Below are positions 42,101-45,100 of a DNA stretch of 64,000 bases, piece by piece (the stretch's first letter is position 1; every line of letters begins with the position of its first letter). Location: contig CAIIXF020000012.1 in NCBI GenBank assembly GCA_903813345.2, forward strand, positions 24,936,184-25,000,183, given 5' to 3'. Source of the stretch: Owenia fusiformis. Lineage: Eukaryota > Annelida > Polychaeta > Sabellida > Oweniidae. The position numbers and the translations under genes were made by a program. Under the pieces are notes generated by a model. It saw only the letters and a list, made by a program, of their open reading frames with translations. It was not told the origin of the DNA and made no database searches.

Positions 42101-45100
42101 ATGATTTTAAAATATTTTAGAGTTGTTTCATTGAGTGATAACAAATTCAGAAAATGTTTCTCACTTTGTCTAAAAATTGAAGAAGGATAATGAACCAATA
42201 GACTATGAGTTTCTTGGGAAAGCATAACCTGCAGTGGCATGGTTACATACGGTAAGTGGACAAATCCTAATAAATGTAACCATATTGGGCAGAACAGAAC
42301 TCCCTCGCAAAGAATCCAAGTTGAGACTCTTGTATGATGATTTCCTGTATAAAGATTGAAATTGGAAAACAATCAGAAAATGAAATATTGTAAATAGTTA
42401 CATAGTTCTATTCAATGGAAAAACAAGTCACCAAGAAAATGTAATGATTTTCTATGTATAAAGGAAAATCTATTAAAAATGGAGTGTTCACTGAAAATAA
42501 ATTCTGAAAAACTTAAATGACTAGCATTGAAGTAACTAATTGAGCAGTCCTGTGACATATAAACTTCATGTTAAAGGGGTACATTTTCCATCGTGGAACT
42601 CTATATGTGTATTACCAAAACAACCTTTTAGTAACCTGTCATATAATAGTCATCAGGTCAATTAATTGTTCAATATATAAAACCAATCATAGAATCATCG
42701 AGTTGAATAACAGCAAGGAATTCACGAAACAGGTGCCATGTTACATATTTCATGAAAGATTAATATTAATTAAAGAATTGTTGAATAATACAAGTGCCAT
42801 ACTTACAATTATTTTAGTTAGAGAAAAATAATCTAAAGAAATCTGCTGAAAACAACTTCATGAATAAACAAATTCATAACTCTACCTTTAATTCAAAGAT
42901 GTCGCACGTACTAAAGCAAATTTTAAGATTTCAATAGAAGTGTTTATTTTGGGGTTCTTTTTTGTATTAATATTTATACATGTAAATGTAAGAGTATCAG
43001 CATGTGTACATATAAAAGGGTGTCACATGCTAAGAACATCCTTGCTGCAAGGGTACATAGAATTTAAGCATAAATGAAGTCCTTTGAAGAAGGATGGCTA
43101 AGAAATAACCAAGAGGTATTTAAAGATGGCACCCTCAACACATAGTTTGGATAGCTATTCTTCCGGCTTCTGAAAAGTTCTTTAATATAAGTGCGCATAC
43201 TCAGATATTTTTGTAAAGAAGCTGGTAGCGATTAAAAACACTTCTTTTGGGCCATATTAGTAGGTACAGAGAAATAAAAAGGAGAAAGACTCATTGATAG
43301 ACTCTATGTAAAGGGCAACAAAGGACTAGAATGTGCAGAAAACTATCAAATAATTGACTGTGTAATACGATACATTTCATCATACAATCAGCTATAATAA
43401 CTGACAGACTGAAAAAATGGCGACAGCAAACAGAAATATTGATCGCCTAATAAACTCGAGATCATCGAGAGTTGCTTTGAACTGTGATATCTGCCTGCAA
43501 AATCGTAAATGGGTACCTGCTGTATTGAAATGTTTGAATTGTAATAAGAACATGTGCAAATCGTGTTTGCCAGAACATCCATGTACATGTATTGTGTTCC
43601 AACACCAGACAAACGAAGTAACATCAGTCAATGACCTTGGAAGGCAAATGTTAAAAAAGCTAGAGAAAGGCATTCAAGCAGGTGTTGACCGCAAGGAAAG
43701 ACTTGAAAGGGAGATAAAAGAAAAGAAATCCGAGCTAACAGCATATCGTAAGAAAGAAATTGATCAAGTAAATGCAAGGTTTGACAAACTTGAAGCTGAG
43801 GCTGTTGCAGCTGCAAGTCCACAAATAAAGAAAACTGTTGCTTTTTTGACCAAGCTCGAGCATGATATAAACACTGTACATTTCACTGTCATGCAGCTAG
43901 CAGTAGCTCTTCAAGATCCAGCTGATATGATCAAACAGTTGAATATCAAGAAAGAGGAATGGTGTAATCCTCCCAATGTTGATTTTGAAAGGCCTGATGG
44001 CATATATGCGTGCAAAGACATATTAAGCAAGAAAACAGCATGTGTCTTGTGTAAATATATGTCAAACTCTTATGACTTTAAAGATAAAAGGGGATTTGTT
44101 TATAGTAGCAAGGGACATATTAATTGTACCACAGAAAATGTAGTGTATGGTATAAATTGTAAAGTTTGTAAACAAATACAATATGTGGGTGAAACGGGGA
44201 ATTCTCTAAATGAAAGATTTCGTAATCACCTTTCTGAAATAAAACTTAATAAAAATATGCTCTCCAAACATTTCAATAGCCAAGGGCACACAATAGATGA
44301 TGTTTCTATTATTGGGATAGAATCCCTTGGCTCAAAAAGTGATCAATCAAGAAAAGAAACGGAAGCATCTTGGATCAGACAGTTAGATACCAAATTCCCT
44401 AATGGGTTAAACAAACAATGCCCATCCTACGATTAAGAAAAGTAACGGAAGCATCTTGGATCAGACAGTTAAATACCAAAGACCCTAATGGGTTAAACAA
44501 ACAATGCCTATCCTACTAGTTCCAACTTAATACTGTTGATCAACTTACTGTATTATCGCCTATAAGCGCACAGTGGGCTTGTGAAATTGCAGTGAAATGG
44601 CATGGAATGACAGAGAAATCAAGTCAAAATTCCCAATAAGCACACATATTGATTGGCGATAATATGTGAAAATCAGAATTTGAAGCCTCTGAAATAAATA
44701 TTATGGTACTATAAATGTTTTATCAAGCCAAATCATGCCTTGAGTCATTGATTTACAATAATATTATGTTTGAGATTGATTTTGTTAAAATGAAGAAATA
44801 TTGCGATATTTATCTGTTGGATCTTTGTTTTTATTAACATAACTACCGCGCATGACCAGAAGTAAGATTTACTTACTCAAAAATGAAATTTGATGAATTA
44901 GAAAATCGTAATCTTGTTAGTTTTCCTTCTCTTTTGCCCTCATCACAAGTATTTATCATGTTTCCAAAGTTGCATGTGCGCTTATTAGGGGGGGGGGTGC
45001 GCCAATAGGCGATAATACGGTAGAGAGTTCTCCTTATAGTGTATATAGTGTTTATTGTATTTTACTTACTCCTTTTATTGTTTATAAGGTATCCTTGTAG

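What the first reader, a model, noticed from the sequence alone, without database searches (positions are those of the whole stretch)
43417..44436. TRIM B-box/coiled-coil fused in one ORF to a Penelope-type GIY-YIG nuclease
A 339-codon open frame starts like a neighbouring TRIM gene, keeps B-box 1 and the coiled coil, loses RING and B-box 2 in frame, and then continues into a GIY-YIG endonuclease domain with its Cys cluster, YVG motif, Arg/His/Glu residues and C-terminal GLN intact. TRIM similarity ends at about residue 194, where the retroelement part begins. Both halves are open with no stop at the junction. I know of no B-box/GIY-YIG protein. If expressed it could be a domesticated nuclease that multimerises through a TRIM coiled coil, or a decoy.
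Basis: partly seen in the sequence, partly recalled or inferred. Interest (0 to 1): 0.85.

Follow-up and report, generated by a model that had tools for sequence, protein, structure and literature searches.

The report
TRIM gene fused to retrotransposon nuclease
In this animal genome a shortened TRIM gene is joined, in one unbroken reading frame, to the DNA-cutting domain of a Penelope retrotransposon; the join is there in the assembly, but whether the protein is made or used is not known.

Summary
One 339-codon frame (43417-44436) joins a RING-less TRIM fragment to a GIY-YIG domain from a canonical (RT-upstream) Penelope element. No second such junction was found in this 498-Mb genome. An intact TRIM paralog lies about 11-13 kb beyond the window. 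The nearest long nuclease copy (59% identical) sits behind reverse transcriptase remains on another contig. All eight B-box 1 zinc ligands keep their spacing, and 15 of 15 conserved nuclease columns are kept. The paralogs' C-terminal region was not found downstream. The TRIM part shows weak constraint (omega 0.46; omega=1 rejected at p about 0.03). The nuclease part does not distinguish constraint from neutrality (omega 0.44; 2dlnL 0.40). Expression, orthologs and activity could not be tested. Most likely it is a host-retroelement fusion, made when a 5'-truncated Penelope fragment joined a decaying TRIM duplicate behind its coiled coil, a geometry like that of TRIMCyp. A working gene is about an even bet, and a domesticated nuclease is possible but unproven. 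Two full-text searches showed no TRIM/GIY-YIG protein. It is a new variant of a known kind (host-TE fusion).

The parts
43326..43363 (+). 5' leader block shared with TRIM paralog L001, 53-90 bases before the ATG (not detected before the window TRIM)
   Evidence: 38 bases, 87% identical; aligned upstream regions
43417..44436 (+). chimeric open reading frame, 339 codons plus TAA
   Evidence: the only full-length DNA match in the genome is itself
43483..43611 (+). B-box (residues 23-65): eight zinc ligands with B-box 1 spacing; last part possibly derived from B-box 2
   Evidence: Pfam B-box match below cut-off
43624..43908 (+). coiled-coil helix (residues 70-164)
   Evidence: paralog alignment; single-sequence model, helix with pLDDT block means 73-92 at residues 71-130 and lower after that
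43990..43999 (+). TRIM/Penelope junction
   Evidence: TRIM similarity ends and Penelope similarity begins here
43999..44433 (+). Penelope-type endonuclease segment with Cys pair and GIY-YIG core (residues 241-332)
44432..44516 (+). second copy of the nuclease tail (tandem duplicate of 44346-44430)
   Evidence: 79 of 85 bases identical
37433..39349 (+). neighbouring TRIM paralog with RING, two B-boxes, coiled coil and C-terminal region; one in-frame TAA at 37868-37870
44542..45022 (.). repeat with inverted ends following the fusion
   Evidence: over a dozen long matches, about 75-77% identical
45050..45419 (.). second dispersed repeat following the fusion
   Evidence: long matches up to 92% identical

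Best explanation
A duplicate of a TRIM gene lost its RING and most of B-box 2 by in-frame deletion. A 5'-truncated fragment of a canonical Penelope element (EN domain, no RT) then became joined in frame behind the coiled coil, where the paralogs carry their C-terminal region. Shown: the two sources, the single open frame, the kept zinc-ligand and nuclease signatures, and no second copy found. Inferred: the order of events, and Penelope insertion as the joining step. If translated, the product should be a RING-less coiled-coil dimer (so no E3 activity of the RING type) carrying two GIY-YIG domains. It could pair with neighbouring TRIM proteins or cut DNA. I put expression as a protein-coding gene at about 0.5 and a selected nuclease function at about 0.2. 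The confidence below is for origin and anatomy, not function.
For: TRIM paralogs lie on both sides (37433-39349 in the window; C12:25011574-25013499 beyond it), and the latter shares its 5' leader. The nearest long nuclease relative, L002, has a Penelope-like RT fragment upstream (27.9% over 68 aa to L014's RT, E 9.4e-6; a YIDD motif is readable in another frame), so the donor order is RT then EN. Partial tandems and 5' truncation are described for Penelope (PMC3846280, PMC11167929), and the nuclease tail here is partly tandem. 15 of 15 nuclease columns that are at least 80% conserved in 10 or more of the other 15 sequences are kept (the query was in the alignment). 7 of 7 homologous zinc ligands are kept although 81 of 155 comparable TRIM sites are (p about 0.009). 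TRIM branch omega is 0.46, with 2dlnL 4.59 against 1. Against L001, the three indels in the well-aligned coiled coil are 3, 9 and 9 bases.
Against: The 3' UTR shared by L002-type copies is not detected here; I did not search for target-site duplications or terminal repeats as such, so insertion as the joining step is inferred. There are no expression data. Nuclease branch omega 0.44 is not distinguishable from 1, and the tips of related copies, two of them broken, score 0.18 (2dlnL 11.70 against 1), so a low omega there can reflect element evolution rather than host use. AlphaFold gave no usable nuclease model. A profile search of solved structures gave 0 matches. There is one assembly only.
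Confidence: 0.8

Rival explanations
1. The fusion is a young, non-functional accident: a decaying TRIM duplicate happened to receive an in-frame Penelope fragment and has not yet acquired stops.
For: No second copy found. Nuclease branch does not reject omega=1. TRIM-half omega is higher than the rest (0.46 against 0.24), although equal rates are not rejected (2dlnL 2.79). The neighbouring TRIM already has a stop. Stops alone leave a 339-codon frame open with probability 0.33 at 0.02 and 0.13 at 0.037 neutral changes per site. L002, a copy of the related subfamily, is also still open.
Against: If the tail duplication postdates the fusion, its 6 differences in 85 (95% range 2.6-14.7%) imply about 0.037 changes per site per copy; with an assumed indel rate the chance of an open frame is then 0.005. 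Apart from its own tandem tail, no nuclease match is closer than about 60%. Six of the seven related copies I looked at (L003, L004, L005, L007, L008, L017; not L002) are broken or partial. Zinc ligands are kept.
Confidence: 0.5
2. Expressed RING-less TRIM whose function is carried by the B-box/coiled coil (for example a dominant-negative partner of the neighbouring TRIMs); the nuclease is a passive tail.
For: Constraint and ligand retention are demonstrable only for the TRIM half. A coiled-coil helix is predicted. The 5' leader is shared with an intact paralog.
Against: All 15 conserved nuclease columns are kept, more than a passive tail needs, unless the fusion is young. No expression data.
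Confidence: 0.25
3. Penelope captured a TRIM fragment and the chimera is an element-encoded protein that spreads.
For: Penelope elements can take up or carry host sequence (PMC3846280, sections read).
Against: No second copy of the junction was found, there is no match in the window to the L002 RT fragment at E up to 10, and no hammerhead ribozyme or shared 3' UTR was found. Terminal repeats were not searched for as such.
Confidence: 0.03
4. Assembly error joining two unrelated loci.
For: Only one assembly, no reads at hand.
Against: A misjoin would have to fall in frame at a domain border, and no other genomic copy of either flank across the junction was found in the DNA search.
Confidence: 0.04

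Closest known systems
TRIM5-CypA fusions (TRIMCyp) of primates, rodents and tree shrew
   Same: A TRIM gene whose C-terminal recognition domain is replaced by sequence brought in by retrotransposition, behind the coiled coil (PMC6677749, passages read).
   Different: There the donor is a cellular gene moved by LINE-1 machinery, R-B-CC is kept, and some of the fusions have shown antiviral activity. Here RING and most of B-box 2 are gone, the donor is the retroelement's own endonuclease, and no activity is known.
Canonical Penelope-like elements (RT followed by GIY-YIG EN)
   Same: The nuclease half, with its Cys pair, Y/YVG, R, H, E and final LN residues, is of this kind; the nearest long copy has RT remains upstream.
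   Different: No RT; host TRIM sequence in front; no element ends recognised.
Cellular GIY-YIG proteins: SLX1 (GIY-YIG plus RING) and the ankyrin/LEM group
   Same: GIY-YIG domain combined with another domain in a eukaryotic protein (PMC1564403, passages read).
   Different: Other GIY-YIG families and partners; 'B-box' has 0 matches in that paper's main text.
Host-TE fusion genes in general
   Same: Host domain plus TE-encoded domain in one gene (PMC12062965, start of abstract and term search; PMC10799480, passages).
   Different: 'GIY-YIG' and 'Penelope' have 0 matches in the main text of either paper.

Membership tests
TRIM family (RBCC) | RING finger | tested here: not met
   RING found by Pfam in the window TRIM and L001, not in the ORF
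TRIM family (RBCC) | B-box(es) followed by coiled coil, homologous to TRIM paralogs | tested here: met
   8 of 8 B-box 1 ligands, coiled-coil helix, E 5.3e-22 to a paralog; Pfam B-box only below cut-off
TRIM family (RBCC) | C-terminal region of the paralogs | tested here: not met
   apart from the neighbouring TRIM itself, no window match to L001 residues beyond 343
Penelope-like GIY-YIG endonuclease | homology to the GIY-YIG family with its conserved residues | tested here: met
   held-out profile E 6.8e-24, 15 of 15 conserved columns; the Pfam model alone does not match this member
Penelope-like element | reverse transcriptase in the same ORF | tested here: not met
   no match in the window to the L002 RT fragment; the ORF has only the two halves described
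Penelope-like element | hammerhead ribozyme and shared element ends | tested here: inconclusive
   no Rfam hit in 41500-46400, but none in 7 related loci either; no shared 3' UTR
Penelope-like element | pseudo-LTRs and target-site duplication | not tested
   not searched for as such
Domesticated host-TE fusion gene | expression and conservation across species | not testable with these tools
   no RNA data; the genome has no relatives held here
Domesticated host-TE fusion gene | purifying selection on the TE-derived part | tested here: inconclusive
   omega 0.44, 2dlnL 0.40 against 1

The most novel reading that the evidence does not exclude
A domesticated TRIM-Penelope nuclease: the TRIM coiled coil pairs two retroelement GIY-YIG domains, turning a nicking domain into a dimeric DNA cutter, possibly steered by the B-box or by pairing with neighbouring TRIM proteins, and used against retroelements or foreign DNA.
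Probability: 0.2. Interest if true: 0.82.

Novelty: new variant of a known kind. Interest (0 to 1): 0.5.

Why it matters
If expressed and conserved, it would be a TRIM protein whose effector arm is a retrotransposon's own endonuclease. It would be a nuclease counterpart of TRIMCyp, and to my knowledge the first host gene built with a Penelope endonuclease. It would also suggest that a Penelope fragment can swap a whole domain onto a host gene in frame. Even as a non-functional relic it documents an intermediate of host-TE fusion: truncated donor, in-frame host deletions and a junction at a domain border are still readable.

Tried and rejected
Direct Pfam recognition of GIY-YIG in the ORF failed, so I went through relatives and a held-out profile.

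A profile search of solved structures with the nuclease alignment gave 0 matches at E up to 1; I ran no positive control for it. AlphaFold without an alignment gave no usable nuclease model, neither in the whole protein (mean pLDDT 45.4) nor for residues 208-339 alone (37.2), so I ran no fold search.

A hammerhead ribozyme was looked for in window 41500-46400 and in 7 of the 17 loci then held; none. A relative in viral contigs was looked for; none. Genome contigs was not scanned. Target-site duplications and terminal repeats were not searched for as such.

The TRIM C-terminal region downstream was not found. The plain DNA alignment is unreliable in the deleted B-box stretch (against L001) and over most of the more distant L012, where it places indels that are not multiples of three. 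I use only the three coiled-coil indels against L001 (against the window TRIM the same stretch gives 3 and 18).

Selection tests: TRIM test on 7 sequences with 144 of 193 codons, after masking codons near gaps; EN test on 6 sequences, 142 codons, very long outgroup branches, two rows from broken copies cut at their breaks. P-values are uncorrected. The indel rate in the survival calculation is an assumption of mine.

The nuclease alignment holds 16 sequences. Left out were the broken or partial copies L004, L005, L007, L008, L015 and L017, the second copy in L014, and L022, which gave no match.

Element-encoded capture and assembly error were considered and rated low.

Full report
What is there. 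The window holds an ATG-to-TAA frame of 339 codons at 43417-44436, with no internal stop. A DNA search of its own 498-Mb genome finds the whole stretch once, at its own place; the other 10 matches cover parts of one half. In protein searches of that genome the TRIM half has 58 matches and the nuclease half 49. Both lists are lower bounds. By their coordinates, this ORF is the only place where the two kinds lie next to each other.

The TRIM half. Residues 1-194 match TRIM paralogs, best the frame at C12:25012420-25013178 (44% over residues 35-191, E 5.3e-22; 52% over 13-66), then the neighbouring window gene (39% over 11-194). The first of these, L001, is open for 642 codons and has RING and B-boxes by Pfam. 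In the ORF the RING is missing in frame: the start runs straight into the segment before B-box 1. B-box 1 keeps all eight ligands with unchanged spacing: C23, C26, C39, C42, C47, C50, H54, H63. Its last residues align at DNA level with the tail of B-box 2, so it may be a hybrid. Two paralogs, L009 and L010, have lost B-box 1 ligands, so retention is not automatic. Of 155 sites at which L001 and the window TRIM agree, the ORF keeps 81. Keeping all seven homologous ligands by chance at that rate has probability 0.009. A helix over residues 70-164 is predicted from the single sequence, confident at 71-130 (block means 73-92) and less so after that. Apart from the neighbouring gene, nothing resembling the paralog's residues beyond 343 is found in the window.

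The nuclease half. Residues 195-339 match C4:28481195 at 59% over 138 residues (E 1.2e-45); a shorter broken match is at 60%. The first locus (L002) has remains of a Penelope-type reverse transcriptase upstream of its nuclease, so the donor order was RT then EN, the canonical one (PMC11167929, passages). Pfam does not recognise GIY-YIG in the ORF itself, but it does in L002 (28.6 bits, cut-off 22.6) and in 13 of 16 aligned sequences. These 16 are a choice from the loci held; broken and partial copies were left out. A profile of 13 of them, without the ORF, L002 and L003, gives the nuclease 80 bits (E 6.8e-24), against 11.5 bits for the best of 1000 shuffles. 15 of 15 columns that are at least 80% conserved in 10 or more of the other 15 rows are kept by the ORF. 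They include Y244, C248, C251, Y256, G258, R267, H271, H285, E316 and N332; the catalytic roles of such residues are recalled. The segment starts about 14 residues before the C-x2-C pair, so it is the EN domain without RT.

Junction and surroundings. TRIM similarity fades at residues 189-194 and nuclease similarity begins at 195. A 38-base block 53-90 bases before the ATG is 87% identical to the leader of L001, which suggests that the TRIM start region was kept; the window TRIM does not show it. The nuclease tail is followed by a second copy of its last 85 bases with 6 differences, and the ORF's stop lies at that seam. Then come two dispersed repeats, 44542-45022 and 45050-45419. The 3' UTR shared by L002, L005, L007 and L008 (95-97% identical to each other) is not detected here. 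No hammerhead was found here or in seven related loci, so that negative is weak.

Selection. On 144 codons and seven TRIM sequences the ORF branch has omega 0.46 against 0.24 for the rest; omega=1 is rejected weakly (2dlnL 4.59), and equality with the rest is not rejected (2.79). Controls on the same data: window TRIM branch 1.01, L001 0.63, L009 0.39, none rejecting 1 (2dlnL 0.00, 0.49, 1.52), and L012 0.11 (30.95). For the nuclease, the ORF branch has omega 0.44 and does not reject 1 (2dlnL 0.40). The branch leading to the L002 group has 0.38 (0.76). The tips L002, L003 and L004, two of them broken copies, have 0.18 (11.70). So low omega in this family can reflect constraint while the element was active. 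As the TRIM branch covers time before and after the fusion, these tests do not show constraint on the fusion itself.

Age. If the tail duplication happened after the fusion, its divergence (7.1%, 95% range 2.6-14.7%) means about 0.037 changes per site per copy. A neutral 339-codon frame would then avoid stops with probability 0.13, or 0.005 if one also assumes 0.1 indels per substitution. It is not known that the duplication is younger than the fusion. For comparison, of the three related copies that cover most of the domain, one is open (L002) and two are broken (L003, L004).

How it most likely arose and works. Shown: two sources, one frame, signatures kept. Inferred: a TRIM duplicate in a cluster lost RING and most of B-box 2, and a 5'-truncated Penelope fragment joined behind the coiled coil. 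Penelope copies come as partial tandems and 5' truncations, with microhomology at a 5' junction in one described case (PMC3846280, section read). If translated, the protein lacks a RING and would pair through the coiled coil. It could carry two nuclease domains or interfere with neighbouring TRIMs. I consider a working gene about as likely as a relic, and a selected nuclease function (about 0.2) less likely than either.

Known and new. The nearest parallel is TRIMCyp, where retrotransposed cyclophilin A takes the place of the TRIM5 recognition domain (PMC6677749, passages). A full-text search for GIY-YIG with TRIM, B-box and fusion listed one paper, on prokaryotic EVE domains, and one for GIY-YIG with TRIM and tripartite motif gave none. 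Searches on Penelope with domestication (9 papers, all listed) or co-option (12 of 37 listed) show no Penelope-derived host gene in the titles and abstract openings. Of those papers I opened only PMC3846280 (abstract and two sections). The 2006 GIY-YIG survey lists SLX1 with RING and ankyrin/LEM proteins, and has no B-box in its text (passages). The library is open-access papers only, so this does not prove novelty. On this evidence it is a new variant of a known kind, a host-TE fusion.

Noticed in passing
window 37433-39349: Neighbouring TRIM gene is open for over 600 codons except one TAA at 37868-37870, where the paralog L001 has TTA; a recent nonsense change, a polymorphism or an assembly error.
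   Followed up: partly
window 44542-45022: Repeat of about 480 bases with inverted ends of about 27 bases and over a dozen long matches about 75-77% identical; looks like a MITE.
   Followed up: no
L014 (C2:20093500-20098000) and similar places on C7, C8, C10, C11: GIY-YIG matches occur as divergent pairs on opposite strands about 0.4-1.1 kb apart; in L014, the one pair looked at, both are Penelope-like 3' ends.
   Followed up: no
L006 (C1:60765000-60769500) and places on C3 and C7: Open frames of 876-998 codons with the GIY-YIG domain towards the front, the permuted order recalled for Naiad-type Penelope elements (L006 read in part).
   Followed up: no
window 46449-49553 (-): 1034-aa open frame with endonuclease and reverse transcriptase features of a LINE (by recall, not searched), 2 kb from the fusion.
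   Followed up: no
window 3246-4644 and 25970-26516: Repetitive stretches that leave long repetitive frames open on both strands.
   Followed up: no
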